The position numbers and the translations under genes are program-made. 64,000 nt of DNA from the NCBI RefSeq assembly GCF_000196175.1, contig NC_005363.1, positions 1,488,001 to 1,552,000 of the forward strand, read 5' to 3'. How positions within the stretch are numbered: the first letter of the stretch is position 1; each line of letters opens with the position of its first letter. Shown here piece after piece: positions 27,862-57,312 of the stretch. The notes under the pieces were generated by a model. It searched no databases, was not told the DNA's origin, and was given only the letters and a program-made list of their open reading frames with translations. This stretch comes from Bdellovibrio bacteriovorus HD100. GTDB lineage: Bacteria; Bdellovibrionota; Bdellovibrionia; Bdellovibrionales; Bdellovibrionaceae.

Positions 27862-27986
27862 TTGGCTCTGTGTATAGCTATTATTGTCGCCACGCCATCC
27901 GGGCTCAGTCGGTGCCACAGCTTCGCTGTGGTTCGCGCATCCATGCGCCACCGAAGGGCGACAATAATAGCTATACACAGAGCCAA
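27862..27986. repeat. Long inverted repeat E1 (30-base perfect arms)
   Basis: Bases 27862-27891 and 27957-27986 are perfect reverse complements over 30 bases (left arm begins TTGGCTCTGTGTATAGC). The 65-base loop contains its own hairpins, ACAGCttcGCTGT and GCGCATccATGCGC, enclosed by TCGGTG...CACCGA. It lies 45 bases upstream of the gspL start, in the gap between gspL and the opposing gene. Confidence 0.95.
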
Positions 27987-28114
27987 TGGCATAAAAGACC
28001 TGCATCTTGGCGCGGGGGATGTAGGCTGTTCCCCTTTGGGGAAGGCGCGTTTTTTGGGGAGGGGCGGAGGTTGGAGGAGTGGGCTGGATTTTGGTCGAGG
28101 CGATGGCGGTGGAG

Positions 28115-28153
28115 TAACGCAATTCGCCGCCGTAGCGAGGGCGGATTGCGTTA
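28115..28153. repeat. Short inverted repeat (14-base arms)
   Basis: Arms 28115-28128 and 28140-28153 match at 13 of 14 positions with an 11-base loop GCCGTAGCGAG. No T-run follows in either direction, so it is not an obvious terminator. It sits 130 bases upstream of the 28284 gene. Confidence 0.8.
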
Positions 28154-28283
28154 ATTGGTTGAGTTGTGGGGGTGTTCAGATATTAGACGGTCCTTGGAAA
28201 TTTTGCTGGTTTCTTCGATGTAATCATACAGAAACGTATTTAGTGATAGAAACGCGGATCAAATTCAATTTTTTGAGGTTTTC

Positions 28284-29519
28284 ATGCGTTCTTTTGGCGT
28301 TTTTGTGTTGGTCTGTCTGGTTTCGCTTAATTCACATGCTTTGTTTGGGATTGGGAAGAAGAAGAAAGCTACTCCTGTTTCAGAGTATTCAAAAGGACAT
28401 ACGATTAAAACAACTGACGGGTGCAGCTTGAATTTGTCAGATCTTTATATCAACCCTAAAAACAAACATTCTTGGAGCGGAGCCTGCCCTGGCGGTTATG
28501 CGGAGGGGATTGGCTGGGTATCTGTTCAAGCGAATGGAATTTCATATAAAGCCTTTGCAGTTCAAATGCAGCGTGGATGGGTTCTGCCGGGGAGCTACTG
28601 GTATATTTCCGGTCAAACAGATTTCTACCAAAGCACACTTGGGGCTCATGATTGTAAAGATAGAAAGAGCAATATGCAGCAATGTGCTCGGATTGAGTCG
28701 TTCGTGGCTGCGAACCCTCCTTATGAGCAAATTCTGACTTCTGATGGGTGTAAACTTCAGCAACCTAGCTTGCTGGTCCATGGATCGCAGGTGACCTGGA
28801 GTGGGAAGTGTGAGAATGGCTTGGCCGAAGGGTATGGATATGTAAGGCACCCTTCTAGGGATGGGAACAATGTCATTATTGGAAAATCAGCCTATTTGTT
28901 GCGTTATCATCAAGGCAAGAGAGTTGTCGGCAGTTACTATCAGTGGGACTCTGAGCTCAATGGATCCAAAAACTCGTTCATCTTCAAGATTGATCACGTT
29001 CTAACTCCTATGCATATTGAAACATTAAAGCCCTGCGCGTCCATCAAGCCTTGTAAAGAGTTGATGGCGGCGAAGGCTTTGGGTGGGAAGAATCCTGAAG
29101 GAATGGCTCCGGTGTCGGACTTCATGCCTCCCGTTACTAATACTCGTGGGGGTGGGGATCGTCCTCCGACATTTGATCCCAATCCTCGTCCGAATCCGGG
29201 TGTTCCGGCGCAGCCTCCGGTGAATGGTGGGAATGGTTCTTCTGCTGGTGGCGGATATGGTAGCGGCAAGTACAAAGCTCCGAAAGTGGCTTGTGATGAC
29301 TATGCTTTGGGTCTAGAAATGGACAAACACTCTGCAACTATTAATGAGGGCGTTGGGATCTGTGACAATGCCAAGGCGACGGCAAAACTTTATGAGTTCT
29401 ATGCCAACTTGCTAGAGGCGAGTTGCCCGTACAAAACTGCTGAAGTGGCACAGGTGCGTGAGGCTGTCGAATCTGCCAAACAAACAATTCGTGGCAGTTG
29501 CACAGACTATAATTACTAA
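28284..29519 (+). CDS. Secreted Cys-containing protein with two tandem MORN-like repeats
   Basis: 411 residues with signal peptide MRSFGVFVLVCLVSLNSHA. The mature part has two copies of a domain of about 110 residues. Both copies contain DGC, a WSG-x-C core (WSGACPGGYAEGIGWVS and WSGKCENGLAEGYGYVR) and a later long strand. The G-x-AEG-x-G pattern is like a MORN motif with added Cys pairs. A Pro/Gly/Asn-rich linker (about residues 280-330) leads to a C-terminal helical part with four more Cys. Function unknown. It runs against the surrounding gsp genes, has TGAGG six bases before the ATG and ends at a bidirectional terminator, so it behaves as an inserted cassette. Confidence 0.8.
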   Translation: MRSFGVFVLVCLVSLNSHALFGIGKKKKATPVSEYSKGHTIKTTDGCSLNLSDLYINPKNKHSWSGACPGGYAEGIGWVSVQANGISYKAFAVQMQRGWVLPGSYWYISGQTDFYQSTLGAHDCKDRKSNMQQCARIESFVAANPPYEQILTSDGCKLQQPSLLVHGSQVTWSGKCENGLAEGYGYVRHPSRDGNNVIIGKSAYLLRYHQGKRVVGSYYQWDSELNGSKNSFIFKIDHVLTPMHIETLKPCASIKPCKELMAAKALGGKNPEGMAPVSDFMPPVTNTRGGGDRPPTFDPNPRPNPGVPAQPPVNGGNGSSAGGGYGSGKYKAPKVACDDYALGLEMDKHSATINEGVGICDNAKATAKLYEFYANLLEASCPYKTAEVAQVREAVESAKQTIRGSCTDYNY

Positions 29520-29547
29520 TTAAGAAAATCTTAGGTTCTAAAAACTA

Positions 29548-29573
29548 AAAACCCCGGTACATCGCCGGGGTTT
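29548..29573. terminator. Bidirectional terminator between the secreted protein and gspK
   Basis: AAACCCCGG and CCGGGGTTT pair around TACATCG, with A-rich left and T-rich right flanks. It lies 28 bases after the stop of the + strand gene and just past the gspK stop on the other strand, so it should separate gspK from gspL transcription. Confidence 0.92.
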
Positions 29574-29579
29574 CTTTTT

Positions 29580-30887
29580 TTATCTTTCGTTCCAGTACAC
29601 AACTCGTGGGGGGCCTTTCGGGATCTGAGTGGCGTTGGCGTTGTTGCCCCCGGCACCAGCACCGCTTCCTCCGGCGGCGCCGGATCCGGAACCACCAGAG
29701 CCAGAGGATCCGCCGCCTCCAGTGGTGTCGCCGCCCGCTGCGGCTTTTTTGTCTTTATCGACGTAGGATTTCACTTTGCTTGCGGTTTTTTGCAGGTCCA
29801 TTACCACCGCAACAATTTCGCGTGTGGCGCCGGCGAATTCACCAGTGCTGCGGATCTTGAAGTTCATCACGCTGTCGCAGATCAAGGGCACGTCTTCAGG
29901 ATTTCCTTCGATGCGCACGCCTTTGCCTTGAACAAACTGCCAGAAGTCGCTGCTGCCGCCGCCTTGATCACACTTAAATGGACCGCCTTCTTCTTCGGAA
30001 TCGCGGCGTTTGATGATCTCGGTCACCACTTCATCGGTCATCGCCGGGTCCAGGGACTTTAGAACTTCGCGGGTCGCAATGTTCGGGTTGATCCCTTTCA
30101 TGCCATAGATGGTGACCCGCGGGGCCATCAAGTCATAGAAATCATCGTTCATGCCCGGGACCATGTGCAGTTCGGCAACAGAGCGGAACGGGCGGTTGGG
30201 TGGATAGTAATCGCTTTGCGAAGCCTGGTTCAGCTCTGCATAGTTGGCGCGTTTGTCGCCGCCGTTTAAAGAGGCAGATTTCGGGCTCATCCAGTCGGCG
30301 ATGTTGTTCACCAGCTCGTCAAATCGGACGTTGCTGTATTCACGCTGGAAGTTTTCATCTTCCTTCATTTTTTGTGTAAAGATCGTGACCAGTTGTTTTT
30401 TCGTCAGCTCTTGCAGCGATTTTGACGGGGAGGCCAAGTCATTGATATCGATCTTGGACCCTTCATCCTCGATCGTCACAATGTAGCTTGTGTCCATGGA
30501 CGAATCCGCGACAGCTTTTTTGAAGGCATCCTTGTCGATGGCACTGAGTTCATCCGGCACCGGCAGGGGCCATGCAAACGGGAACTGCCAGATTTGATCC
30601 AGCATCTTGGTGTCACCCAGTTTGTCGCCCAATTTGCTTTGGGCCTGTTGGTAAATCTTAATACGCAGCAGGCTCAGCTGCATGCCGGACTTCGCGGCAT
30701 AGTAAGCCTTCACGCGGTTTAAACCCTGTGAATTCACCAGGTATTCAACGTTGGAATCGTAAGACACTTCCATCGCAATCCACATCATCAGCATGATACA
30801 GGCAATCGCGATCATCAGCGCGATGCCCCGGGCATTATTGATTGGGCGCTTGAGTTCGCGGCCAAGAGCTTTGATTGCCTTGAGCAT
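29580..30887 (-). CDS. gspK: Type II secretion minor pseudopilin GspK
   Basis: 435 residues from ATG 30887, behind GAGGAGGGTG. The N-terminal prepilin region is RGIALMIAIACIMLMMWIAMEV; like other GspK proteins it lacks the Glu5 of the remaining pseudopilins. The long periplasmic part includes DEGSKIDINDLASPS and INPNIATREVLKSLDPAM, recognisable GspK landmarks. GspK caps the pseudopilus tip with GspI and GspJ. Unusual: the C-terminal 55 residues are a Gly/Ser/Ala-rich low-complexity tail ending PPRVVYWNER. It overlaps gspJ by 53 bases, a long overlap for this set. Confidence 0.9.
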   Translation of the reverse strand: MLKAIKALGRELKRPINNARGIALMIAIACIMLMMWIAMEVSYDSNVEYLVNSQGLNRVKAYYAAKSGMQLSLLRIKIYQQAQSKLGDKLGDTKMLDQIWQFPFAWPLPVPDELSAIDKDAFKKAVADSSMDTSYIVTIEDEGSKIDINDLASPSKSLQELTKKQLVTIFTQKMKEDENFQREYSNVRFDELVNNIADWMSPKSASLNGGDKRANYAELNQASQSDYYPPNRPFRSVAELHMVPGMNDDFYDLMAPRVTIYGMKGINPNIATREVLKSLDPAMTDEVVTEIIKRRDSEEEGGPFKCDQGGGSSDFWQFVQGKGVRIEGNPEDVPLICDSVMNFKIRSTGEFAGATREIVAVVMDLQKTASKVKSYVDKDKKAAAGGDTTGGGGSSGSGGSGSGAAGGSGAGAGGNNANATQIPKGPPRVVYWNER

Positions 30888-31716
30888 TTGCACCCTCCTC
30901 TGAATTGTTGGGGAAGTGAATAGGGACGATCAGTTGCATTGAATACTTTTTGCTTTTGCCGGCGGTTTTCTTTTCCACGGTCAAAGAGATCTCAACCGCT
31001 TGCGGGAACTTTCCTTTGGTCGCCGCATCGCCTTGAGCATCTGTGCGCCAGTCGTTGGCCCAATCCTGTTTGCCTTTACCCATATAGCGCAGTTTGAATT
31101 CGCTGACGTTTTCAAGCAATGCGACCTCGTCGCCACCTTTGGTGACATCCAGATCCACATACGGAGAGCTTCGGCGCCATAGGCACTTGGAGCTGCCGCC
31201 GCCTTCGCGCAACGATTTACAATCGCGCAGGGCATAGCCGACTTCGATAAAGTCCGCCTGCTTGGTGTTTCTGACGGTGCGGGCATTGTTCATGGTCACA
31301 AAATTGATGGACTCGTTGTTGCCTACGAAGTGAGTCTCGGGATCGCGACGGGGAACTTCTCGTTGCTCAGGTTGTTCCGGTGGGTCGTTCGTGATTGGGC
31401 CGGCGCCTCCGCCTGGGAATCCGCTGCCAGAGCCGTCAGAATTTCCACCGGCACCACCGGCGCCCGTGTTTTTCTTCTTCATCAGCTGCTCAAGTTCTTT
31501 TTCAACGTCGCGATAGTGGTAAGCCAGATTGATGTCTCTTTCCAGCAGGCGCAAACCATCACGCATGCGGGACACATCATCGATCTGATCTTGCAGTTTG
31601 ACCTTGGCTTTCACAGCCTGCTGAATGGCCTGCGCCGTCAGCATCGTGAGTGTCCCCAGGATGGTGATCGTGATCATAAGCTCAATCATGGTAAAGCCGC
31701 GGTTGTGTTTCATCAT
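30835..31716 (-). CDS. gspJ: Type II secretion minor pseudopilin GspJ
   Basis: 293 residues from ATG 31716, whose first base is the last base of the gspI stop. The prepilin start is RGFTMIELMITITILGTLTM with Gly before Phe as cleavage site and Glu5. Middle residues 85-120 are a Gly/Ser/Pro-rich insert (GAGGAGGNSDGSGSGFPGGG) not expected in a typical GspJ of about 200 residues. The distal part has the beta-rich pseudopilin domain (FKLRYMGKGKQDWANDWRT). It probably joins GspI and GspK at the pseudopilus tip. Confidence 0.88.
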   Translation of the reverse strand: MMKHNRGFTMIELMITITILGTLTMLTAQAIQQAVKAKVKLQDQIDDVSRMRDGLRLLERDINLAYHYRDVEKELEQLMKKKNTGAGGAGGNSDGSGSGFPGGGAGPITNDPPEQPEQREVPRRDPETHFVGNNESINFVTMNNARTVRNTKQADFIEVGYALRDCKSLREGGGSSKCLWRRSSPYVDLDVTKGGDEVALLENVSEFKLRYMGKGKQDWANDWRTDAQGDAATKGKFPQAVEISLTVEKKTAGKSKKYSMQLIVPIHFPNNSEEGANAQGNQSSWPRTQAPNQ

Positions 31717-32216
31717 CACATCCCCGGCATCGAAGGCAGTGGCAGTTCCTTGTCATAGTCGACAAAGTACTGAGTGGCAGAAAACTCCAAAGGTTTTTTG
31801 GCACCTTTATAGATCACAGTCACTTTGACTTCTTTCACGGACTTGGAAAGATGCTCCGTCAAAGTCTTCATCACGGTCAAAGCCATTTCATCGGCACCAC
31901 CAGCCTGGGCGGTGAGGGTCGCTGAAATATCCGGGACTTCAAATTCTTTGGAGGTCATTTTCCAGGTGTATTGCGGGTACTCAGAACCAAAGTCGTCTTC
32001 GGTTTCTTCCGGGATGGAGTCCAGAGGCTTTCCGGCGTACTCCATTTCGACTTCGACCATTTTTCGTTCAAGCAAAGCGGTGACTTCGGTGGACAGTTGG
32101 GTCTTGCGGACACGCATGAAAGAACCGCTCCAGGAATTTGCCAAAAGCATAATTCCTGAGGACAGGATCACCATCGCCATGATGGTTTCAATCAATGTGA
32201 ATCCGTTTTTTTTCAC
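31716..32216 (-). CDS. gspI: Type II secretion minor pseudopilin GspI
   Basis: 166 residues. Starts MKKNGFTLIETIMAMVILSSG: prepilin leader of five residues, Gly-Phe cleavage site and Glu5, then the hydrophobic helix. A WKM...PDISATLTAQ beta region follows, as in GspI. It overlaps the gspH stop by four bases and the gspJ start by one base. In type II systems GspI is the core of the tip trimer that starts pseudopilus assembly. Confidence 0.9.
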   Translation of the reverse strand: MKKNGFTLIETIMAMVILSSGIMLLANSWSGSFMRVRKTQLSTEVTALLERKMVEVEMEYAGKPLDSIPEETEDDFGSEYPQYTWKMTSKEFEVPDISATLTAQAGGADEMALTVMKTLTEHLSKSVKEVKVTVIYKGAKKPLEFSATQYFVDYDKELPLPSMPGM

Positions 32217-32797
32217 CGCTGGACTTCCTTTAACGAAGAAGCTTTCTCAATGATATCAGCTTGACCCGTTAAAGGATTAAAAACAAGAGTCCAAGTTAAA
32301 TTATTTCCATTCGTGATCTGCACAGCAGAGGCTTCCACAAAGCCCTCTGGGAAGAAATGGATGTAGGCCACCCCGGAAGTCATAGGGGATTTCATATTCA
32401 CAGTCTCCACCGAGGCAAAACGCAGGCCCTCGGGAAGCTCTTTTTCTTTTTTCAGCAGGGACTTGTCCATCTGAAACAGTGGCGGAGGAGCGCCCTCTTC
32501 ATCCCGGTCTTTTTCTTTTTCCGCAGCTTCAGGATCCACAGCTTGGGGGCCACTGGCGCGTTCCAGCCAATACTTTTCCTCTCCCGGTTCCATGCTGATG
32601 GCCAGGCGGTAAGTGGAGTTGGTCAAACGGGCTTTGTTGCGGATTTCTTTGGAAAGAACGATGAAGTTGCGGGCGACGGACTTGATGTTGCCGTCTTTTT
32701 TGAGAAGTCGGGGGGCTCCCACTGTGATCAGGGCGGCCATAATGGCCAGCACGATCATGATCTCAATGAGAGTGAAACCCCGCTGATTACCAGGCAT
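32213..32797 (-). CDS. gspH: Type II secretion minor pseudopilin GspH
   Basis: 194 residues. Starts MPGNQRGFTLIEIMIVLAIM with cleavage Gly, Phe and Glu5. The periplasmic domain includes FIVLSKEIRNKARLTNSTYRLAI, the helix-strand start typical of GspH. A charged loop (KEKDRDEEGAPPP) is longer than usual. GspH joins the pseudopilus below the tip complex. It lies five bases after gspG and overlaps gspI by four bases. Confidence 0.88.
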   Translation of the reverse strand: MPGNQRGFTLIEIMIVLAIMAALITVGAPRLLKKDGNIKSVARNFIVLSKEIRNKARLTNSTYRLAISMEPGEEKYWLERASGPQAVDPEAAEKEKDRDEEGAPPPLFQMDKSLLKKEKELPEGLRFASVETVNMKSPMTSGVAYIHFFPEGFVEASAVQITNGNNLTWTLVFNPLTGQADIIEKASSLKEVQR

Positions 32798-32802
32798 CTG
32801 AA

Positions 32803-33213
32803 TTAGTTCAGATCATCCAGTGTGATGTCTTTGTCAAAGCCAGAACCACCTTCGCGGCCGTCTTTACCCAAAGATTTCAAAGAGTATTCGCCACCTTCCA
32901 GTTCGTAAACCAGATCGTGACCGAATGGATCTTGAAGTTTCTTGGTGTAGTAAGGCTGAGGACCCCAGTTAGAGCAGTTTGGATCAGCAGTTGTCAGGCC
33001 TTCCAAAGTCTGAGGATATTTACCGCAATCCGTGTAGTACATGGAAAGGGCATTCACGATTTGTGTCAGTTGGATCTTAGCCTCTTTGGCTTTGGATTTA
33101 TCCAATTGTCCCGTGATGTTAGGAAGAAGAAGAGCTGCGATACCACCGATGATGGCAAGGACGATCATGATTTCAATCAGAGTCATACCCTTGCGGTTTT
33201 TGAGAAGAGACAT
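32803..33213 (-). CDS. gspG: Type II secretion major pseudopilin GspG
   Basis: 136 residues, the normal size. Begins MSLLKNRKGMTLIEIMIVLA with Glu5 after the cleavage Gly; Met replaces the usual Phe at mature position 1. The C-terminal domain has the GspG pattern YYTDCGKYPQTLEGL, DPFGHDLVYE and SLGKDGREGG, the last part of the calcium-binding loop. GspG is the main subunit of the pseudopilus that pushes substrates through the secretin. An AAGGAG site precedes the ATG. It heads the G-H-I-J-K block, separated from gspF by an opposing cassette, so a promoter in 33214-33330 is expected. Confidence 0.95.
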   Translation of the reverse strand: MSLLKNRKGMTLIEIMIVLAIIGGIAALLLPNITGQLDKSKAKEAKIQLTQIVNALSMYYTDCGKYPQTLEGLTTADPNCSNWGPQPYYTKKLQDPFGHDLVYELEGGEYSLKSLGKDGREGGSGFDKDITLDDLN

Positions 33214-33635
33214 ACTTACTCCTTTTTACAGACATTGAGGATAACAAAACCTAGCCCAAAATCAAAGGACAGAGCGGCAGCCGGACTAATGTCACATAAT
33301 AATTCTTCGCTTGGGATTTCGGTTTTGCGACGCCTGAAGAGGAGACTGAGGCCTGCGTCTCGCCTTCGGACAGTCCTCGCTCGTGTTGGCTTTTTCTGTT
33401 TCGCCTTGTTGGGTGGCTCGGCTGCGGAACTCGGCGTGACTCAGGCCTCAGTCTCCTCTTCAGGCTCGAATTGGATATCACAGTGAGATTGTATGGGACA
33501 TTGGTCGGGACTGCCTTTGCTGGGTTGTGAAGGTGTGTGGATGGTTTGGGGTGGGGAGTTTATGGGTTACTTTAGGTTTTTGGTTGGACGTTTGTCTGTC
33601 TTATTTTGAGTGAGGGAACTGCCGATAAGTTTGGG
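33214..33635. other. Non-coding gap between gspG and the opposing gene
   Basis: Contains inverted repeat E2 (33332-33465). The remainder should hold the divergent promoters; the 120 bases next to gspG are AT-rich with no clear consensus, and the stretch 33490-33635 is GT-rich. No gene seen. Confidence 0.7.
33332..33465. repeat. Long inverted repeat E2 (34-base arms, two mismatches)
   Basis: Bases 33333-33355 and 33442-33464 are perfect 23-base reverse complements (left arm begins CCTGAAGAGGAGACTG). Pairing continues one base outward and nine inward with two mismatches. The loop contains GACAGTCCTCGC (33369-33380) and GCTGCGGAACTCGG (33421-33434), both also found in element E3. It lies between gspG and the opposing 33636 gene. 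Confidence 0.95.
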
Positions 33636-34700
33636 ATGAGAAGTGTTTTTGGTGTCGTGTTCTTGTTTTTGATGCAGGCGCAGGCTTTTGAAATTTCGAA
33701 GCAATCGGGCAAGCTTATTTTGTCGGGGGCGTGTGAAGAAGGGAAAAGTATTTACTCTTCTTTGGCGCGGTGGAGCACGAATGCTAAGACGGGGAAGACT
33801 TGTGATCCTGTGGCTGTGGCTGGGGAGTCCGGTGGTTCCTGTAATTTGGATATCACGGATTGTGTGCCCGAACATGTGGTCAAATATCATGGGGCCAGGC
33901 CGGAAGTGGATGGGCCAAACTGTTGGAATCTGTCTTTGGTGATGAGTAAAATTTTGCCAGCCATGCGTTATTCTACGCCGGAAGAAATGAATTTTTATAT
34001 GCGTCCGCCTCTTTGCCGCGCTTTAAAAGACGGTGAAAAGAAAGAGCCGGGGGATGTCGGTGCCATTCGTCAGATCGCGGGTTTTAATAAGACCGAGGAA
34101 TATCACGGGTTCATCTATATCGATGAAAAAATCGCCTACTCTAAAAACGGTTTTAGCAACATGGCGCCTTATGAATTGCAGACATTGGATAAGGTTTACA
34201 GGACCTACGAAGTCCCGGATAAACCGGGATGTCGCCAAAATGTGATCAACTCCAAGAGCTCCCAGTGTGGTCAGGCGGTGGCCTTCTATCGCTGTGATTC
34301 CATGGATGAATACTTGGAAAAAAACAAAAATGTTCCGGATCAGGTTCGTGAATCCTTTAAGAATATGGATGCGGCTGAAAACTGCGTGCAGGAAGCTCTG
34401 TTTAAAGGGGATACTTTAAGTGTTGAAGCCCGCAAGAACCTGCGTGATACAGGCCTTGCGCTTGTCGAGTACCTGCAAAGCGCGAAGAGCAAACCTGAAG
34501 TTGCCAAAATGAAAGCTGAAGAGCGTGACTTCCTTTTGGGAAGTCTGCAACTGCGTCTGGCGGCTCTGGGTGATCAATTGGAGTTCGTCGCGATGGAAAG
34601 GCAGGATGGCGAGGCCTTTAAAGCCTCCGGCGAATTGAAATACGTGGCCGAGATGTTACAGGCCTCGGCAAAGCAGCTGAAAAAAGGAGCTCGCAAATGA
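33636..34700 (+). CDS. Secreted NlpC/P60-like cysteine peptidase candidate
   Basis: 354 residues from ATG 33636, since a signal peptide starts there (MRSVFGVVFLFLMQAQAFE). Residues about 85-170 show PNCWNLSLVM (possible nucleophile Cys), then PGDVGAIRQI and EYHGFIYIDEKIAYSKNG (possible His). This order, Cys then PGD then H-x-x-x-Y/I, is the layout of NlpC/P60 and related papain-like amidases that cut peptidoglycan peptides. The C-terminal 120 residues are helical. Further Cys residues could form disulfides. It overlaps a lipoprotein gene by four bases. The peptidase call is motif-based, with no known close family recognised. Confidence 0.5.
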   Translation: MRSVFGVVFLFLMQAQAFEISKQSGKLILSGACEEGKSIYSSLARWSTNAKTGKTCDPVAVAGESGGSCNLDITDCVPEHVVKYHGARPEVDGPNCWNLSLVMSKILPAMRYSTPEEMNFYMRPPLCRALKDGEKKEPGDVGAIRQIAGFNKTEEYHGFIYIDEKIAYSKNGFSNMAPYELQTLDKVYRTYEVPDKPGCRQNVINSKSSQCGQAVAFYRCDSMDEYLEKNKNVPDQVRESFKNMDAAENCVQEALFKGDTLSVEARKNLRDTGLALVEYLQSAKSKPEVAKMKAEERDFLLGSLQLRLAALGDQLEFVAMERQDGEAFKASGELKYVAEMLQASAKQLKKGARK

Positions 34701-35122
34701 GGAATGCATTGTTGATGTTGTTGGCAGGATTTGTTTTGGCGGGCTGTGGCTCTGTGTGGAAGGGGCCCGAGGCGGCACCGGTGCGCAAGCCTGATAATGC
34801 CTTAGTGACTGGGCAGGAATTGAAAGCCTGGGGGCCTGTGAACCTACTGCAAGGACTGAAAAGCCATTGCTGCAATGGCGTGATGATCGAAAAGACGGCT
34901 GTGACATTCTGGGGCGAAGCCGAGATCGCGGAACTGCAAAAGTATGTGGATGACACAACTCCATCCGCTCCGGTGTATCGTCCGTCCAGCGCGGTGATGT
35001 GCCATGGACCAAAATACGTTTCTTCCGTGGGCCGCGAAGCCCGCCATCTGATCGAGGGGATTAAGAAGGGGACGTATCCAGTCTCGCAATGCTCCACCTA
35101 CGATCTGCAATTCTCCGAATAA
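34697..35122 (+). CDS. Lipoprotein of unknown function, partner of the preceding gene
   Basis: 141 residues. Lipoprotein signal MRNALLMLLAGFVLAGCGS with lipobox VLAGC. The mature part has a CCNG pair and two more Cys (VMCHGPKY, SQCSTYD), and a helical middle (GEAEIAELQKYVDD). No family recognised. Start overlaps the end of the NlpC/P60-like gene (ATGA), so the two are co-translated and may act as an anchored pair or as an enzyme and its inhibitor; neither is shown by the sequence. A bidirectional terminator follows at once. Confidence 0.7.
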   Translation: MRNALLMLLAGFVLAGCGSVWKGPEAAPVRKPDNALVTGQELKAWGPVNLLQGLKSHCCNGVMIEKTAVTFWGEAEIAELQKYVDDTTPSAPVYRPSSAVMCHGPKYVSSVGREARHLIEGIKKGTYPVSQCSTYDLQFSE

Positions 35123-35152
35123 AAAAAGGAGCCTCAAGGGCTCCTTTTTTAT
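35121..35152. terminator. Bidirectional terminator between the lipoprotein and gspF
   Basis: AAAAAAAGGAGCC and GGCTCCTTTTTT pair around TCAAG. It follows the lipoprotein stop on the + strand and lies 20 bases past the gspF stop on the - strand, so it probably ends the gspC-D-E-F message. Confidence 0.92.
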
Positions 35153-35172
35153 TTCTACTTTTGCTCTAAATT

Positions 35173-36390
35173 CTATCCCGCAACGTTCGCCATTTCGAAC
35201 ATTGGGACCATGACGGCCATAACGATCATGCCGATCGCGGCACCCATGATAACGATGACGATCGGACCCATGATGCTGGTCAGGCCTTCCAATTTGGTTT
35301 TTACCTGGAAGTCATAGGCATCCGAAACCTGGCTTAGCATGTTTTCCAGCTCGCCGGTTTTTTCGCCGATGTTCACCATGTGGATCACGATAGGGGGGAA
35401 CTGGCCGGATTTTTTCAATGGACCGGCAATAGATTCACCCTCAGAGATATTGCTACGGGCTTCATCAATCGCTTTGGCCAGAACGTGGTTGTCGACAACG
35501 TTTCTGACGATATCCATCGCCGCCAGCATCGGAACACCACCATTTAGAAGTGTCGCCAGGGTGCGGGTGAAGCGGGAAACCGCAACCATGCGAACCGTCG
35601 GGCCAATCAGCGGCAATTTCAAAGAAATCGCATCCCATTGGTTTTTGCCGGCCGGGGTGTTTCTCCAGTTGCGGAAGAGCAGATACACGATCAGCATGCT
35701 TCCCAAAATCAGATACCAATAGTTCACCGCAAACTGGGACGCATCAATCAAAGCCACTGTGTACCACGGAAGCTGCAACTGCGGAGCGGACTCAAACACG
35801 GTCACCATTTTTGGAATCAGGAAGATGAACAAGAAGCCCATCAAACCAAAGGTCACAACCAGCATGATCACCGGATAAGTCATCGCACTGCTGACTTTGG
35901 CGCGCAAATCGGCCTGAGCCTCGGTGAATTCTGCCAGACGCATCAAGATGACATCCAGGCTTCCTGACATTTCACCGGCTTCCACCATCGAAACATAGAT
36001 CGTGGTGAAGACGTTCGGGTATTTCAGCATGGCTTTATGCAGGGTGGAACCTTCGTTGACCATGTTCTTACAGTCAGCCAAAGCTTCCGCCAGAGTCGGG
36101 TTTTCGACCTGTTCAGAAACGGCTGTCAGTGCATCCACCAATGGGATGTTGGCTTTGATCAATGTCGCCAGCTGACGGGTCATCAAAGAAAGGTCTTTCA
36201 CGCCCACGTTTTTAGTGGCGCGGGGACCGGATTTCTTTTTTGGATCGATCTTCTTTTTGTCTTTAATGTCGATGACAAAGATATTGTCTTTTTTGAGCTT
36301 GGTGCGGGCCGCACGCTGGTTCTCAGCGTCGATGGTCCCTTTTACGTTTCTTCCGTCTTTCGACAGGCCTTTGTACTCAAAAATAGGCAT
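35173..36390 (-). CDS. gspF: Type II secretion inner-membrane platform protein GspF
   Basis: 405 residues, standard length. Two repeated GspF/T2SF domains, each with SVARFTRTLATLL-type or LSLMTRQLATLIKANIPLVDAL motifs, and three membrane helices (PVIMLVVTFGLMGFLFIFLIP, WYLILGSMLIVYLLF, GPIVIVIMGAAIGMIVMAVM). GspF is the multi-helix core of the assembly platform, contacting GspE and GspL and helping add pseudopilin subunits. The gene lies 80 bases after gspE; the gap contains post-stop hairpin copy C. Confidence 0.95.
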   Translation of the reverse strand: MPIFEYKGLSKDGRNVKGTIDAENQRAARTKLKKDNIFVIDIKDKKKIDPKKKSGPRATKNVGVKDLSLMTRQLATLIKANIPLVDALTAVSEQVENPTLAEALADCKNMVNEGSTLHKAMLKYPNVFTTIYVSMVEAGEMSGSLDVILMRLAEFTEAQADLRAKVSSAMTYPVIMLVVTFGLMGFLFIFLIPKMVTVFESAPQLQLPWYTVALIDASQFAVNYWYLILGSMLIVYLLFRNWRNTPAGKNQWDAISLKLPLIGPTVRMVAVSRFTRTLATLLNGGVPMLAAMDIVRNVVDNHVLAKAIDEARSNISEGESIAGPLKKSGQFPPIVIHMVNIGEKTGELENMLSQVSDAYDFQVKTKLEGLTSIMGPIVIVIMGAAIGMIVMAVMVPMFEMANVAG

Positions 36391-36419
36391 TGTGGTTACC
36401 TTATAAGTCGTTTCTAAGC

Positions 36420-36470
36420 TGGTTCAGCTGCAGGGGCGAAGCCCCTGCGCTCTCCGCGGCTGCCGCCGCC
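36420..36470 (-). repeat. Post-stop hairpin element, copy C (after gspE)
   Basis: Begins directly after the gspE stop codon on the minus strand. It has GGCGGCGGCAGCCGCGG, as in copy A, then a hairpin GCAGGGGC-ttc-GCCCCTGC and a CAGCTGAACCAGC end resembling the GCTGAAGCAGC of the other copies. Confidence 0.65.
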
Positions 36471-38165: not shown

Positions 38166-38170
38166 CAGAA

Positions 38171-49587: not shown

Positions 49588-49761
49588 ATTTGGTGTGCAC
49601 ACTTTTTGAGCGGACGGGTCCGAGTTTCTCTCTTTTTCAATATGCTTGCAAAAAGAATATGGACAACTGGACTTTTCCACCATTAAATAGGAGCAAACTA
49701 AAATTAGGACAGCATTCGTTTGTCTTTGGCCCACATCGTAATGAGTTAGCGAAGGATGATT
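49588..49761. other. Intergenic promoter region before actA
   Basis: 174 bases with a short CGGAC-ggg-TCCG hairpin near 49620 and an AT-rich stretch (ACCATTAAATAGGAG) around 49680 that could be a promoter. No clear terminator for ccsA, so read-through into act is possible. Confidence 0.4.
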
Positions 49762-50301
49762 ATGCATCGGGTATTCAAAAGAACAGCGGCGGGCGCAATG
49801 GCGTTTATTGGCGCGCTCATGGTTACAACACTTCTGACAGGCTGTAAATTCCAGCCGGGTTGGGGATATAATAAAGGATACGCTCCAGAACAGCCGATTC
49901 CTTTTGATCACTCTCTACATGTGGGTACGCACAAAATGCAGTGTCAGTACTGCCACAATCAAATCGAGAGAACAAAACACGCAAACATTCCTGCGCTTTC
50001 AACGTGCATGAACTGTCACTTGCAGGTTGCCACCGACAAGCCGGCAATCCAAAAGCTGCGTGAAGCTTATGATAACGGGGACTCCATTGAATGGACTCGC
50101 GTTCACATGCTTCCGGACTTCGTTCACTTCAACCACAACGCCCACATTGCCAAAGGCGTGAACTGTCAGACGTGCCACGGTCCAATCGAGACCATGAAAA
50201 CCGTTCAACAGTTCTCTGATCTCTCTATGGGTTGGTGCGTGAACTGTCACCGTCAGCCAGAGAACAAAGCTCCACTTAACTGCTCAACTTGCCACTACTA
50301 A
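49762..50301 (+). CDS. actA: Alternative complex III subunit A, pentahaem cytochrome c
   Basis: 179 residues from ATG 49762 (MHRVFKRTAAG); an ATG two codons earlier lies too close to AAGG. A hydrophobic N-terminal segment ends in a lipobox-like LLTGC. Five haem-binding CXXCH motifs are present: CQYCH, CMNCH, CQTCH, CVNCH and CSTCH. This count is characteristic of ActA, the periplasmic electron-transfer subunit of alternative complex III. It needs the cytochrome maturation genes just upstream. Twelve bases separate it from actB. Confidence 0.93.
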   Translation: MHRVFKRTAAGAMAFIGALMVTTLLTGCKFQPGWGYNKGYAPEQPIPFDHSLHVGTHKMQCQYCHNQIERTKHANIPALSTCMNCHLQVATDKPAIQKLREAYDNGDSIEWTRVHMLPDFVHFNHNAHIAKGVNCQTCHGPIETMKTVQQFSDLSMGWCVNCHRQPENKAPLNCSTCHY

Positions 50302-50313
50302 GGGTTTGGTAAA

Positions 50314-53300
50314 ATGTCTGAACATCATGATCACGATCACGATTTAGAAATGAAAAAAGCGCTTCGCCCGAAAGTGGAGCGCGACACAAAATACTGGAAC
50401 AGTCTTGAACAATGGAGCAACGATCCAGAGTTCAACAAAATTGCTTCCACTGAATTCCAGTCCTCTCCATTGCGTGAGAGTGACGATGAAGGCGGCTGGG
50501 CACGCCGTGAATTCCTGAAGCTGATGGGTGCATCCCTTGCGATGGCTTCTGCAGGTTGCATCCGTCGTCCGGTTCAGAAAATCGTTCCTTACAATAAACA
50601 ACCAGAAGAAGTGACTCTGGGTATGGCGAACTACTATACCTCTGCTTACTTCGATGGTTCTGACGCTTTGGGTGTTTTGGTTAAAACACGTGAAGGCCGT
50701 CCTATTAAAATTGAAGCAAACCCTGGTCATCCATTCAGCATCAGCGGTTTGAGCATCCGTTCCCAGGCTTCTTTGTTGTCCATGTATGATCCTGAAAGAC
50801 TGAAAGGTCCTCAGCGCAACCTGTTCAACGAAAAGAAATCCAACAGCCAGGTTATCGACGTTAAGTGGGAAGACCTGGATAAAAAAGTTGCTGAGCAGCT
50901 GAAAAAAGGTGACGTTGTCATCCTTTCCGGCAACGTGGCTTCTCCGGCAACCCGCGCGGTGATCGGTGATTTCGCTCAAGGTTTCAAAGCCAAACACGTG
51001 GTTTGGGAAGCTCTTTCCAATGACGACGTTCGTGAAGGTCAAAAAGCCTCTTACGGCGACGACGTGGTTCCGGCGTTCCGCTTCGATAAAGCGAAAATGA
51101 TCGTTTCCATCGACGCTGACTTCCTGGGTACATGGATTTCTCCTACAGCGTTCACGAATCAGTTCGTTGAAGGCCGTAAAGACATCAAAAACATGAACCG
51201 TTTGGTGTCCTTCGATTCTAATTACTCTTTGACTGGCGCCAATGCGGACATCCGCATGAAAATCAAGCCTTCCCAGCAACTGGATGTTGTGATGGGTCTT
51301 CTTCACGAAATCATCGTGAAGAAAGGTGCTTCCTCTCACGCTGGCAACAGCGCGGTGAAAGCGGCTTTGGCTCCGTTTGCTGACGTGGCTAAAAAACTGA
51401 ATGTGGAACCTGCTTTGTTCGCGAAAGTGGCGGCAGATCTTTGGGCTAATCAGGGCACTTCCCTGGTGGTTGCAGGTGGTATCACCACTCTGACTGAAAA
51501 ATCCAAAGAACTTCAGGTGGCAGTGAACTTCCTGAACTCCATCCTGGGTAACGACGGCAAGACAGTTGACCACAACGGTGGAAACAAAGGTGACAAAGCT
51601 TCTCAGGCGGATATGGCTGCTTTGATCAAAGACATGAAAGATGGCAAAGTGAAAACTTTGATCATCCACCGTGTGAATCCAGGCTTCGTTCTGGGCGCGG
51701 ACATGGGCTTTGCTGAGGCTATCAAAAAAGTCGACCTGGTTGTTTACACAGGTGACCGTATCGACGAAACAGGCGTCTTTGCTGACTACATCACTCCGGA
51801 CAACCACGCGTTGGAATCCTGGAGCGATATGGAACTGGCTTCCGGTGTTTACAGCATCTGCCAGCCGTCCATCCGTCCAATGTACGACACTCGTTCCTTC
51901 CAGTTGTCATTGATGACTTGGGCGTACCTTGCGAACATGGGTCCATCCCGTCTTCGTGACTACGAGACCTTCTATGATTACCTGCGCGTCTTCTGGAAAT
52001 CTGACATCTTCCCTAAATACGGAAAAGGTCAGTCCTTCGAGGACTTCTGGCAGACGGCTCTGCAAAAAGGTTATGTCGGGGAGATCAACTCTGGTTCTTC
52101 TTCTCGTTCCTTCAAAGTGGATGCATTCACATCCATCAAACCTGCAGCGGCAAAAGAAGGCTTTGAACTGGCTCTTTATTCCACTTCTCAACACGGTGAT
52201 GGATCGCTTGCGAACGTTTCCTGGTTGCATGAGCTTCCAGATCCAGTGACCAAAGCAGTTTGGGACAACTATGTGATGGTTTCTTTGGCGACGGCTGAAA
52301 AGCACGGCCTGAAACAAGCGACTGTGGTTGAACTGACTGTGGGCGGTAAAACCCTGGAACTTCCAGTGTTGATCCAGCCGGGTCTGCATGATGACGTTTT
52401 GGCAGTGGCTGTCGGCTTCGGTCGCACGCGCGCTGGTAAAGTGGGTAATGGCATCGGTCAAAACGCCTTTGTCTTTGTGACTGCTAAAGACGGTAAAACT
52501 GTTGCCGCTGGTTCTTCAGCGACTTTCAAGAAAACTTCCAAAAAGTATGAACTTGCGATCACGCAAGGTCACCACACAATGGAAGGCCGTACGATCGCCG
52601 TTGAAGCGACATTGGCTGATTACAACAAAAAGAAATCCACAGGCATCCCGCACCCACACGTTTGGTCCATCTGGTCCGGCCACGAATACAGTGGTCACAA
52701 ATGGGGCATGGCGGTTGATCTTCACTCCTGCACAGGCTGTTCTTCCTGCGTGATTGCATGTCAATCCGAGAACAACATCCCGGTTGTGGGTAAGCGCTAT
52801 GTGATCGAAGGTCGTGAAATGCACTGGTTGCGTATCGACCGTTACTACATCGGCAATCCGGAAAACGCAGAAGCGGTCTTCCAGCCGGTGATGTGCCAAC
52901 ACTGTGACAATGCTCCGTGCGAAACGGTGTGTCCGGTTCTGGCGACGGTTCACTCTGACGAGGGTCTGAACGACATGGTTTACAACCGTTGCGTTGGTAC
53001 TCGTTATTGCGCGAATAACTGCCCGTACAAAGTACGTCGTTTCAACTGGTTCAACTATGCGAAACTGATCGAGAAGCCGATGCACATGGCTCTGAATCCT
53101 TCTGTGGGTGTTCGTACCCGCGGGGTGATGGAGAAATGTACATTCTGCGTTCAAAGAATCCAGGATGCCAAAACAGTGGCTCGCAATGAAAAACGTCAGT
53201 TGAAAGACGGGGATGTTAAGGTTGCGTGTCAGACTGCATGTCCTGCAGGCGGTATCGTATTCGGCGACCTGAACGATCCAAACAGTGCGGTAGCCAAAAT

Positions 53301-53447
53301 CTTCAAAACTGAAGAACGTGGTTACGCACTTCTTGAAGAGTGGCATGCGGCTCCGTCCGTTCGCTATCTTTCCAAGATCCGTAACAATGATAAAGAATCA
53401 ACTGGTGATCAAAAAGGTCACGGTACTGCAAAACAAGGTGAGCACTC

Positions 53448-53451
<4 letters not shown>
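50314..53451 (+). CDS. actB: Alternative complex III subunit B, molybdopterin-like plus Fe-S
   Basis: 1045 residues, the fused form of ActB1 and ActB2. A twin-Arg motif [10 protein letters not shown] and a lipobox-like ASAGC occur near residue 70. Residues about 85-700 resemble the molybdopterin oxidoreductase fold but, as in other ActB proteins, probably lack the cofactor. The C-terminal 250 residues hold Cys clusters for iron-sulfur centres: [36 protein letters not shown] and CTFCV with CQTAC. ActB forms the electron wire of the quinol-oxidising complex. Its stop overlaps actC (ATGA). Confidence 0.95.
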
Positions 53452-54808
<1,357 letters not shown>

Positions 54809-54809
<1 letters not shown>

Positions 54810-55333
54810 TGGCGGCTAAATATACAAAAGGTATTGCTGGTATCTGGTTGGAAGAGGCTCAAATTCTGAAAGCGACCCGCAAAGTGCGTGAGTCCGGTTT
54901 CACGAAGTTTGAAGCGATCTCTGCTTATCCTATTCACGGAATGGAAGAAGCAGCGGGTATCAAACGCTCCTGGATTCCTTACGTGGCATTCACTATGGGT
55001 CTGGCTGGTTTGGCTGGTGGTCTTGCATTGACTTACTGGACATCTGCTGTGAACTGGGCGGTGAACGTGGGTGGTAAGCCGTTCTTCAGCTTGCCTGCGT
55101 TTGTACCTATCATGTTCGAATTGACGATTTTGTTGTCGGCGCTTTCTTCAGTAGGGGCTTTGTTCTATGCCTGCGGTATCCCGCGCATGGATCCACCGGT
55201 GATCGATCCGGATCTAAGCTGCCACAAGTTCGCTATCTTTATCCCGCACAATGACAACGGTTACGACGAAGCTAAAATTGAATCTATGTTCAAAGAGCTT
55301 GGCGCAACTGAAGTGAAGAAGACGGAGTACTAG
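54809..55333 (+). CDS. actD: Alternative complex III subunit D (DUF3341 type)
   Basis: 174 residues. Starts with a cytoplasmic beta-alpha region (LKATRKVRESGFTKFEAISAYPIHGMEEA), followed by two membrane helices (WIPYVAFTMGLAGLAGGLALTYW; VPIMFELTILLSALSSVGALF) and a short C-terminal domain. This is the ActD layout of one ferredoxin-like domain and two helices. It holds the other membrane subunits together. Its first base is the last base of the actC stop. Confidence 0.92.
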
Positions 55334-55337
55334 TAAG

Positions 55338-55919
55338 ATGAGAAACATCGTGAATATTTCAATGGGTGTTGCAGCAGCGGGATTGGCTGTTCTGGCGTTG
55401 TCCAGCTGCGGTCCTCGTGGCAACAAGCCGAATGTGGAATTGATCCAGGATATGATGGTGACTCCGGCCGTGAAGGCTCAGTCCTACGATGCGGATGCTC
55501 CTCATCACCGTGGTATGCGTGTTCCTCCGGAAGGGACAGCTCCGGTTGGTTTTGAACCGTACCAGTATGCTACCGACGTGGAAGCAGCTTCCAAGAATCT
55601 GAAAAATCCACTGGCTGGTAAAATGGACGAAGAGACTTTGATCGTAGGTCAGAAATTCTACGAGACCAACTGTGCTCTTTGTCATGGTTACAAAGGTGAA
55701 GGCGGTGAGGCTGCGAAGTCCACCATCTCTGCAAAAATGGCTTTGAAGCCGCCTGCAGTTGTGAGCGACAAGGTTAAAGGCTGGACCGATGGTCACCTTT
55801 ATCATGTGATCACAGTGGGTCAGGGTGTGATGGGTCCTTATGCTTCCCACATTCCTCAGCAGTACCGCTGGCAGGTTGTTAACTATATCCGCTTCCTAGA
55901 GAAGCAAGAAGCTAAGTAG
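55338..55919 (+). CDS. actE: Alternative complex III subunit E, monohaem cytochrome c lipoprotein
   Basis: 193 residues. A lipobox-like LALSSCGPRG suggests membrane anchoring. One haem site CALCHGYKGEGG is near residue 112, with the probable distal Met in GPYASHIPQQYRW-adjacent GQGVMGPYA. The rest is a class I cytochrome c fold ending VNYIRFLEKQEAK. ActE is the likely exit for electrons to cytochrome oxidase. Four bases after actD and seven before actF. Confidence 0.93.
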   Translation: MRNIVNISMGVAAAGLAVLALSSCGPRGNKPNVELIQDMMVTPAVKAQSYDADAPHHRGMRVPPEGTAPVGFEPYQYATDVEAASKNLKNPLAGKMDEETLIVGQKFYETNCALCHGYKGEGGEAAKSTISAKMALKPPAVVSDKVKGWTDGHLYHVITVGQGVMGPYASHIPQQYRWQVVNYIRFLEKQEAK

Positions 55920-55926
55920 GTTGTAA

Positions 55927-57129
55927 ATGGGCGCAAGCAATCATCATGTGAATCTGCATGTATCGAAATTTGAAGCTCCAGCGAAATTGAAAACGCTGAG
56001 CTTCGCCCTGATCGCGATCGGTCTTTTGACTTTCGTGATCGGTCTTATGAAAAATCAGGACAGATTGTGGACTTCTTATCTGGTGTCCTATTTCTACTTC
56101 TCTTGCCTGGCCTTGAGTGGTTTGTTCTGGATCGTTATCAACAACGTGGCTAAAGCCGGCTGGTCCGTGTCCATCCGTCGTTATGCTGAAGCAACTACGT
56201 CCTTCCTTCCGGCGATTCTAATCGGTGGTTTGGTTCTGTTGGTTGGTTTCAAGCACCTTTACCCTTGGGCGAACCCAGAGGTGGTGGCTGCAAATCCGGT
56301 GATCGCGGCGAAAACCGGCTACCTGAACATGGGTGGCTTCGTGATTCGTCTGTTCATCTTTGCGGTCGGCTGCATGATCTTCCGTCATGTGATCGTGGGC
56401 AACTCTTTGAAACAGGACAAGTCCGGTGACGAGTCTTTGACGACGAAGTCTGTGGCTCCGTCTGTTGGTTTCATCGTGTTCTACGCTTTGATGTTCTCTT
56501 TGTTCTGCGTGGATCTGTTGATGTCCTTGCTGCCAACTTGGTATTCCACCATCTTTGGTATCTATGGCTTCTCTGGTATGTTCCAGGCGGGCATGGCATT
56601 CCTGGCGATCGTTATCGTTTTGATGAGACGCTCTGGTTTGGTTAAAGGTTATGTGACTGAAGAGCACCAGCACGACGTGGTGAAATACCTTAAAGGTTTC
56701 TCCATTTTCTGGGCTTACATTGCGTTCTCTCAGTTCATGTTGATCTGGTACGCTAACATCCCTGAGGAAACTGAGTACTACATCGCGCGTGCTCAAGGCG
56801 GCTGGATGAGCATCTCCATGGCTCTTCTGATCTTCCGTTTCGTGGTTCCGTTCCTGGCACTTTTGCCTCGTGGAATGAAACGCAACGACAACAACGTGTT
56901 GTTGATCTCTGTCTTGGTATTGGTAATGCAATACGTGGACATCTACTGGATGGTTTACCCGAACTTCTTCGACGGTCACGTGACCTTCGGATTCTGGGAA
57001 ATCGGCATCTTCGCTGGTTTCGCGGGTGCGTTCCTTCTGACAATCATGTCCTTCTGGTCTAAGCACTCTTTGGTTCCGTTGAAAGACCCAAGAATGCACG
57101 AAGCGCTGAACCACCACGTTGCTTACTAA
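55927..57129 (+). CDS. actF: Alternative complex III subunit F, NrfD family
   Basis: 400 residues with ten predicted helices. It shares the NrfD family pattern with ActC but is shorter; landmarks include RRYAEATTSFLPAIL, MLIWYANIPEETEYYIAR and DIYWMVYPNFF. ActF is the second quinone/proton-linked membrane subunit. The cluster order actA-B-C-D-E-F is the standard one. No cytochrome oxidase genes follow, unlike many genomes where cox lies next; an intrinsic terminator comes 70 bases later instead. Confidence 0.94.
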   Translation: MGASNHHVNLHVSKFEAPAKLKTLSFALIAIGLLTFVIGLMKNQDRLWTSYLVSYFYFSCLALSGLFWIVINNVAKAGWSVSIRRYAEATTSFLPAILIGGLVLLVGFKHLYPWANPEVVAANPVIAAKTGYLNMGGFVIRLFIFAVGCMIFRHVIVGNSLKQDKSGDESLTTKSVAPSVGFIVFYALMFSLFCVDLLMSLLPTWYSTIFGIYGFSGMFQAGMAFLAIVIVLMRRSGLVKGYVTEEHQHDVVKYLKGFSIFWAYIAFSQFMLIWYANIPEETEYYIARAQGGWMSISMALLIFRFVVPFLALLPRGMKRNDNNVLLISVLVLVMQYVDIYWMVYPNFFDGHVTFGFWEIGIFAGFAGAFLLTIMSFWSKHSLVPLKDPRMHEALNHHVAY

Positions 57130-57142
57130 GTAGCACGTGGTC

Positions 57143-57312
57143 GGCTGACGGAGTGGGGGCCATGGCCCTCAAAACGCTCAGACAGTCCTCGCACAAAGGG
57201 AGCCTATCTTGGCTCCCTTTTTTTATTCTATTTACTCTTCTGATTACTACGGCAGGTTTTTCGGGTGCTGCGGAACTCGGTTTTGAGGACCAAGGCCCCC
57301 ACTCCGCCAGCC
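57143..57312. repeat. Long inverted repeat E3 (33-base arms, three mismatches)
   Basis: Arms 57143-57175 and 57280-57312 are reverse complements at 30 of 33 positions (left arm starts GGCTGACGGAGTGGGGG). Between them are GACAGTCCTCGC (57181-57192) and GCTGCGGAACTCGG (57267-57280), the same two blocks as in E2, and an intrinsic terminator. It follows the actF stop by 13 bases. Confidence 0.93.
57195..57224 (+). terminator. Intrinsic terminator of the act operon
   Basis: AAAGGGAGCC and GGCTCCCTTT pair over TATCTT and are followed by TTTT. It lies inside inverted repeat E3, between its two conserved blocks. Confidence 0.92.

What the first reader, a model, noticed from the sequence alone, without database searches (positions are those of the whole stretch)
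27862..57312. Family of long palindromes with unrelated arms and a shared core (E1, E2, E3)
Three inverted repeats of 125-170 bases each have arms of 30-34 bases that pair perfectly or with two to three mismatches, yet arm sequences are unrelated between copies. E2 (33332-33465) and E3 (57143-57312) share GACAGTCCTCGC a few bases inside the left arm and GCTGCGGAACTCGG touching the right arm. E1 (27862-27986) shares the arm-loop layout, with weaker loop similarity on the opposite strand. So structure is kept at the arms and sequence in the core. This could be a small mobile palindrome, perhaps moved in trans by a REP-type (HUH) transposase, or a structured RNA or termination element. I know of no named element with this description.
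Basis: seen in the sequence. Interest (0 to 1): 0.8.

Follow-up and report, generated by a model that had tools for sequence, protein, structure and literature searches.

The report
Repeated hairpins with rewritten paired arms
Bdellovibrio genomes carry two families of scattered DNA hairpins whose short core sequence is fixed while the roughly 30-base paired arms differ from copy to copy and can change on both sides together; they look like an undescribed kind of folded repeated genomic element whose function is still unknown.

Summary
E2 and E3 belong to a real family: 16 of 16 exact GACAGTCCTCGC sites in the 3.78-Mb genome lie in a paired-arm hairpin, and so do 106 of 107 fetched places in Bdellovibrio and one relative chosen by core motifs alone. 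E1 is a copy of a second family. Outside the genus but within its taxonomic family, each was found only in one sampled genome, the same one. Family 1 also occurs in Coriobacteriia, Myxococcales and Omnitrophota records. Arms are unrelated between copies; at one site in close species both arms can be replaced while flanks stay alike. Mismatch bias (A.C 67: G.T 23; 17: 2) and A-rich linkers suggest that the minus strand is selected to fold. No Rfam match. REP/RAYT movement is not supported. Best reading: a structure-recognised single-strand hairpin element, probably spreading, often placed after gene ends, its arms a sequence-free but pairing-bound stem. Whether it acts as ssDNA or RNA, and with which enzyme, is open.

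The parts
33332..33364 (-). E2 (family 1): one half of the variable arm helix
   Evidence: the repeat finder I1, 94% complementary to 33433-33465
33369..33380 (-). E2 conserved core block GACAGTCCTCGC (+ strand letters); GCGAGGACUGUC on the strand that seems to fold
   Evidence: consensus of 131 copies
33381..33420 (-). E2 apical region (type B, variable, A-rich on the minus strand)
33421..33434 (-). E2 conserved core block GCTGCGGAACTCGG
33433..33465 (-). E2: other half of the variable arm helix
   Evidence: different in both sister species
57143..57175 (-). E3 (family 1): one half of the arm helix
   Evidence: the repeat finder I3, 91%
57181..57192 (-). E3 conserved core block GACAGTCCTCGC
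57195..57224 (+). intrinsic-terminator-like hairpin with T-run, enclosed in the apical region of E3
   Evidence: sequence; the same gene has a plain terminator in most species without the element (by eye)
57267..57280 (-). E3 conserved core block GCTGCGGAACTCGG
57280..57312 (-). E3: other half of the arm helix
27862..27891 (-). E1 (family 2): one half of the arm helix
   Evidence: the repeat finder I2, 100% complementary
27892..27956 (-). E1: conserved core of family 2 (several small hairpins)
   Evidence: repeated in the genus; 28 of 30 loci read have paired arms
27957..27986 (-). E1: other half of the arm helix
32803..33213 (-). neighbour of E2: type II secretion protein G gene; E2 lies upstream of it
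   Evidence: ORF; Pfam PF08334, E 1.1e-25
26149..27822 (-). neighbour of E1: PilM-like gene; E1 lies upstream of it (start codon not certain)
   Evidence: ORF; Pfam PF11104, E 3.9e-20
55927..57129 (+). neighbour of E3: 400-aa ORF whose stop codon ends 13 bases before the E3 arm
   Evidence: no Pfam match

Best explanation
E1, E2 and E3 are copies of two families of multi-copy elements that work as a folded single strand (the minus strand as drawn). Shown: each copy is a fixed core on top of a stem of about 30 bp whose sequence is free but whose pairing is kept (family 1 on the minus strand: arm-GCRAGUUCCGCAG...GCGAGGACUGUCYGARGC-arm). Inferred: the stem is a structural handle recognised by shape, next to a core recognised by sequence, by an enzyme that I have not identified and that may serve both families. 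The element most likely spreads as a non-autonomous single-strand hairpin that is often placed, in fixed orientation, just after a gene end. Inferred: arms stay paired because one arm can template the other during replication (template switching at a quasi-palindrome) and because selection removes unpaired arms. This does not by itself explain where new arm sequence comes from when both arms are replaced.
For: Copies and pairing. Two families with one layout. Co-occurrence: outside the genus, within the taxonomic family, family 1 was seen only in G035 and family 2 only in G035 of 42 genomes; G004, the one of 24 genus genomes without family 1 by exact pattern, has no family-2 match at E<=0.01. 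Strand: A.C 67 vs G.T 23 (131 copies) and 17 vs 2 (28 copies of family 2); one copy per site 44 vs 18; A-rich linkers on minus. Site use: of 66 copies with a + gene on the left, 35 begin from 11 bases before to 22 after its stop, against 2 of 43, 8 of 38 and 5 of 61 for the other three gene-end settings. Sporadic occupancy: the E2 site is filled in G000, G002, G023 and, with another subtype, G011 of 24; E3 site, see full report. Replacement of arms: E2 in G000 vs G023 10 of 22 aligned bases differ in each arm vs 5 of 99 and 7 of 99 in the adjoining 100-base flanks, fourfold-site divergence 0.144. Scar: in G002 the L013 site keeps paired arms but lost the core. tRNA-Leu 3' ends mirrored in the opposite arm at two sites.
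Against: No insertion with a clean target-site duplication was found and no trans-acting gene was identified. G012 and G016 have family 1 but no family-2 match at E<=0.01, and the copy numbers of the two families do not correlate clearly (rho 0.28, p 0.18). Of 36 motif places from other phyla only 18 have arm scores above 12 (30 above 9). Arm identity between orthologues runs from 1.00 to chance with intermediates near 0.8, so part of the change may be ordinary compensatory substitution; some sites keep the same arms for long (L089/L098 at fourfold divergence 0.41). The wobble counts are not corrected for relatedness, and Adlercreutzia copies share one recurrent A.C position. Apical hairpins gave too few mismatches to confirm the strand (A.C 0: G.T 2 and 1: 0). 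TATAAT-like hexamers show a slight excess 5' of the + strand (41 of 131 with at most one mismatch) and none 5' of the minus strand (22 of 131; other-strand controls 21 and 21).
Confidence: 0.4

Rival explanations
1. A structured non-coding RNA or cis RNA motif transcribed from the minus strand. The long stem is its basal helix, which varies between copies as basal helices of riboswitches do; the core is a binding or catalytic loop; it need not be mobile.
For: Wobble bias fits RNA on the minus strand; A-rich unpaired linkers and several apical subtypes; strong folds, z -8.0 to -10.0; E1 and E2 lie upstream of minus-strand PilM-like and T2SSG genes.
Against: No promoter-like signal on the minus 5' side; many copies abut, antisense, the end of a + gene; none of the 19 copies lies in the 8 attack-phase sRNAs of HD100 (PMC3627812 table 2; assumes that the genome is HD100, which I recall from its length); no Rfam family reached its cut-off.
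Confidence: 0.33
2. A transcription boundary or terminator-associated element at gene 3' ends: the gene's own terminator sits in the loop and the arms isolate it from convergent transcription.
For: Position after + stop codons in 35 of 66; terminators enclosed in several type C copies; facing copies at 3426028(+) and 3426340(-).
Against: Arm mismatches do not favour the + RNA; only 25 of 134 have TTTT just after the right arm; many copies hold no terminator; E1 and E2 lie in front of genes.
Confidence: 0.13
3. REP/BIME-like palindromes moved by a RAYT (Y1 HUH) transposase.
For: Y1_Tnp matches occur in 50 of 58 sampled genomes, and G035 has 12; family-2 copy number correlates weakly with Y1 count (rho 0.40, p 0.056).
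Against: 20 of 20 Y1 loci read lack family 1 and a convincing family-2 core; a different palindrome lies beside 5 of them; G007, G012 and G016 have family 1 and no Y1 hit; family 1 does not correlate (rho 0.12); arms are not conserved in sequence.
Confidence: 0.05
4. Ordinary quasi-palindromes kept perfect by template switching, without function; the core is a hitchhiking repeat.
For: Template switching has been proposed to create and maintain perfect stems (PMC8794818, passages); mirrored tRNA ends.
Against: The core is nearly invariant in 131 copies and recurs across phyla; strand-biased mismatches; arms unchanged at strongly diverged sites.
Confidence: 0.07

Closest known systems
REP/BIME repeats with RAYT transposases
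   Same: short scattered intergenic palindromes, many copies per genome
   Different: REPs keep their arm sequence and a tetranucleotide tag (recalled); here arms differ between copies and only the core is kept; the palindromes found beside 5 of 20 Bdellovibrio Y1 loci look different
Structured RNA motifs of the riboswitch/ribozyme type (Rfam)
   Same: conserved loop sequence, variable paired stems, apical subtypes
   Different: no Rfam family reached its cut-off; the basal stem is about 30 bp, some genomes have 20-30 matches, no promoter signal on the folding strand
Integron attC sites
   Same: folded single (bottom) strand, fixed orientation just after a stop codon, variable apical part (attC facts recalled)
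   Different: no RYYYAAC/GTTRRRY boxes in the consensus; the conserved blocks lie inside the stem; copies are scattered, not in arrays
Quasi-palindromes corrected by template switching (PMC8794818, passages; PMC3820800, listing only)
   Same: well-paired arms, multi-base compensatory changes
   Different: here one conserved core recurs in every hairpin and both arms gain new sequence

Membership tests
REP/RAYT | arm sequence conserved between copies | tested here: not met
   non-orthologous arms 0.51 mean identity, max 0.717 in 600 random pairs
REP/RAYT | copies flank a Y1_Tnp gene | tested here: not met
   0 of 20 Y1 loci read with family 1; family-2 core scores 20-29 there against 34-130 in accepted copies
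Rfam RNA families | covariance model match at the curated cut-off | tested here: not met
   0 in the window; in 8 loci at E<=5, 11 matches of which only a tRNA reached its cut-off; the rest, among them miRNA-hairpin families down to E 7e-4, did not
structured RNA | wobble pairs tolerated on one strand | tested here: met
   A.C 67: G.T 23 and 17: 2 on +, i.e. wobble on minus
structured RNA | discrete transcript | not testable with these tools
   no RNA-seq held; promoter scan without support; no overlap with 8 published sRNAs
integron attC | R boxes RYYYAAC / GTTRRRY (recalled) | tested here: not met
   read off the consensus of 131 copies
MITE / insertion sequence | conserved terminal inverted repeats | tested here: not met
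   arms unrelated between copies
MITE / insertion sequence | target-site duplication and clean empty site | tested here: inconclusive
   occupied and unoccupied gene ends seen, no duplication resolved
intrinsic terminator | T-run right after the hairpin | tested here: not met
   25 of 134 with TTTT within 20 bases after the right arm, 16 of 134 with AAAA there
retroelement (RT-dependent) | reverse transcriptase in the genome | tested here: not met
   RVT_1 match in 4 of 24 genus genomes, one of these below cut-off; none in 20

The most novel reading that the evidence does not exclude
A new class of genomic element with a sequence-free stem: one trans-acting system serves two core families, recognises the stem by shape and the core by sequence, and rewrites both arms of a copy in place, so that each copy in each species can bear its own private stem of about 30 bp while core and site persist. 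It would be a diversity-generating hairpin system without a reverse transcriptase, spread over several phyla.
Probability: 0.15. Interest if true: 0.93.

Novelty: new variant of a known kind. Interest (0 to 1): 0.72.

Why it matters
If right, it adds an undescribed, widely spread kind of repeated hairpin whose identity rests on shape plus a short core. It also gives a natural laboratory for how the two arms of a hairpin change together: sites with nearly identical flanks and different, well-paired arms exist in closely related species of a predator bacterium that is grown in laboratories. That makes the old question of how perfect RNA or DNA stems evolve directly testable.

Tried and rejected
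REP/RAYT movement: not supported by Y1 loci and by genomes without Y1. Reverse-transcriptase rewriting (DGR- or retron-like): no RVT_1 match in 20 of 24 genus genomes. Arms as copies of other loci: with the E2 region as query in 24 genomes at E<=0.001, arm matches in G000 were to E2 itself only, and elsewhere the matches were orthologous flanks or centred on the core, one (G011) reaching about 20 bases into an arm (the tool scores a limited number of candidates per genome). Arms from phage, plasmid or prey DNA: E2 against phages gave only short matches (listed E 2-6; 6 of 16 records not listed), E1 against plasmids likewise (listed E 0.4-5; 1 of 11 not listed), E2 against E. coli none. Arms as local self-hairpins: left arms fold only slightly better than shuffles (mean z -0.52, 13% at p<=0.05, n=116). 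Arms as direct repeats: 0 of 116. A circularly permuted core that I thought I remembered: none in 19 sequences. Minus-strand promoter: no excess. Attack-phase sRNAs: none of 8 overlaps the 19 copies. Papers: searches showed no description in their listings; only the held open library was searched, and I opened only two papers (PMC3627812: passages and section 16; PMC8794818: passages).

Limits of the counts. Arm identities come from gapped alignment of 30-base arms (chance level 0.51), so 'replaced' means identity near chance, not a reconstructed event. The 131-copy set was chosen with an arm-pairing threshold; the 107-place test was not, but covers only fetched loci. The swapped-arm control contained orthologous swaps, hence its maximum of 27 (99th percentile 10). 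Cluster 14 (13 copies) was left out of the ortholog tables. Two family-2 loci with arm scores 12 and 13 (L221, L222) were left out of the count. In one search genes are longest ORFs and orthologous copies were not thinned.
Full report
What is there. The window lies in a 3,782,950-bp genome, the length of Bdellovibrio bacteriovorus HD100 as I recall it (the taxonomy entry exists; no call names the genome). The three palindromes are present with the stated arms. E2 and E3 share both core blocks. In the whole genome GACAGTCCTCGC occurs exactly 16 times, and 16 of 16 are followed by a GCGGAACT-type block and flanked by arms that pair; 3 of 14 one-mismatch sites read bring the set to 19. Variant cores (GGACACATCC and the like) exist, so this is a lower bound. 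The core reads YTCRGACAGTCCTCGC ... CTGCGGAACTYG; in Bdellovibrio the apical part between the blocks falls into size classes of about 27-32 (A), 43-49 (B) and 74-80 (C) bases.

Not chance. With places in the fetched loci chosen by the two motifs alone, 106 of 107 distinct places in Bdellovibrio and G035 have an arm-pairing score above 12 (median 27), against a maximum of 9 with shuffled left arms; in the other phyla 18 of 36 exceed 12 and 30 of 36 exceed 9 (median 12.5), their arms being shorter. Arms of non-orthologous copies are no more alike than chance alignments (mean identity 0.51, 600 pairs).

Distribution. Family 1 is found by exact pattern in 24 of 59 genomes: 23 of 24 of the genus and G035 of another genus; the reversed control pattern gives 0. 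In a phylum draw it is in 21 of 290, again only that genus and G035. One exact-pattern scan of a larger genome collection returned 25 stretches, titled Bdellovibrio, Adlercreutzia, Collinsella, other Coriobacteriia or Actinobacteria, Myxococcales or Deltaproteobacteria, and Omnitrophota, many of them metagenome bins; those read have paired arms of varying length. Three of the 11 genomes then searched whole have 30, 21 and 30 matches (Adlercreutzia caecimuris, A. muris, an Enterorhabdus bin). E1 belongs to family 2: at E<=1 each of 24 genus genomes has a match, up to 21 in one; 28 of 30 loci read show the same plan of core plus private paired arms, the two failures being the weak matches of G003 and G004. 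At E<=0.01 family 2 is in 16 of 19 sampled genus genomes and in 1 of 42 others of the family, G035. That both families single out G035 and that G004 lacks both suggests shared machinery; that G012 and G016 have family 1 without family 2 at that threshold, and that copy numbers do not correlate clearly (rho 0.28, p 0.18), speaks against a tight link.

Arms change together. 75 of 131 distinct copies fall into 24 ortholog clusters, 23 of them tabulated. Arm identity runs from 1.00 down to chance, with intermediates near 0.8; in distant pairs the flanks have changed as well. The telling cases are close pairs. At the E2 site three close species have three different, well-paired stems: G000 against G023, 10 of 22 aligned bases differ in each arm, 5 of 99 and 7 of 99 in the adjoining flanks, fourfold-site divergence 0.144. 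At the L001/L065 site flanks (0.91, 0.81), core (0.97) and apical part (0.87) are shared while arms are 0.53 and 0.60. At the L010 site the inner part of the stem is new on both sides while the outer part is kept. At L013 one species has different arms and another has lost the core and kept a hairpin of the arms. At the L018 site the apical part is shared while arms and outer core differ. Other sites are unchanged: L089/L098 arms are identical at fourfold divergence 0.41, and L026 arms are the same in three species. Over the tabulated pairs, of paired positions in one copy 1228 were the same in the other, 277 compensated, 41 wobble on minus, 28 wobble on plus, 159 broken and 100 in gaps; comparisons share sequences, and distant or misaligned pairs inflate the broken class.

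Which strand. On the + strand, A.C mismatches outnumber G.T 67 to 23 in family 1 and 17 to 2 in family 2 (binomial p 3.8e-6 and 7e-4, not corrected for relatedness). One copy per site gives 44 to 18; outside Bdellovibrio 15 to 6 and in a larger set 41 to 10, partly through one recurrent position in Adlercreutzia. A.C on plus is wobble on minus, so selection for pairing seems to act there. Linkers are A-rich on the minus strand. In many copies of both families a CCGAAGC-type motif adjoins the arm on that strand (by eye). Folds of E1-E3 are far below shuffles (z -8.0 to -10.0), as any long palindrome would be.

Where they sit. Of 104 family-1 copies with readable neighbours, 66 have a + gene on the left; 35 of these begin from 11 bases before to 22 after its stop, against 8 of 38, 2 of 43 and 5 of 61 in the other three settings (longest ORFs, not curated genes). 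Two copies of the genome follow tRNA-Leu genes, and their opposite arm mirrors the tRNA's 3' end. At the E3 site 23 genomes could be read (G008 gave no gene-end match): G000, G002, G023 and G006, and with a variant core G018 and G001, have the two-sided element around a terminator; G020 and G015 show only the left half in the 230 bases read; G003 has a degenerate copy; 14 have no element, 12 of them with a plain terminator soon after the stop (partly by eye). The E2 site is filled in 4 of 24 (that finder misses variant cores).

What it is not. No Rfam family reached its cut-off. Not linked to RAYT genes. No reverse transcriptase match in 20 of 24 genus genomes. E2 arms have no other full match in the 24 genomes at E<=0.001.

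Reading. I favour a structure-recognised single-strand hairpin element, probably spreading and non-autonomous, whose stem is sequence-free. A minus-strand structured RNA is the main rival. Arm pairing fits template switching, which has been proposed to create and maintain stems (PMC8794818, passages read); the source of new arm sequence remains unexplained. I file it as a new variant of a known kind because variable paired stems around a conserved loop are the mark of structured nucleic acids in general. The long private arms, the copy number, the joint change of both arms and the spread over phyla are the new part.

Noticed in passing
window 57456-57498: A stretch downstream of E3 matches many other places at about 80-100% in this genome (13 listed) and in other Bdellovibrio genomes; another short repeat family, not identified.
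   Followed up: no
L230 1107-1155, L231 1132-1197, L235 1142-1295, L236 2207-2255, L243 1150-1287: Y1_Tnp (RAYT-like) genes of two Bdellovibrio genomes have a classical palindrome GGGTATCGGTCA...TGACCGATACCC beside them, unlike families 1 and 2.
   Followed up: partly
L018 1464-1600 and 1748-1948 (genome 3426028 + and 3426340 -): Two family-1 copies face each other in one intergenic region; similar facing pairs occur in Adlercreutzia and other Bdellovibrio genomes.
   Followed up: partly
L280, L282, L297, L298, L311, L300: Variant left core GGACACATCC or GAACACATCC (GGATATATCC in L300) in place of GGACAGTCC, so exact-pattern counts are lower bounds.
   Followed up: partly
L279 near 8270 (minus strand): A minimal family-1 copy whose apical part is only about six bases stands where G000 has a type B copy.
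   Followed up: partly
L287 near 9960: The L010-site copy in G023 has an extra insert of about 60 bases inside the left core block.
   Followed up: no
L149 3079-3180 and L155: Left core block repeated or elements nested in Coriobacteriia copies, as if one element had formed next to a remnant of another.
   Followed up: no
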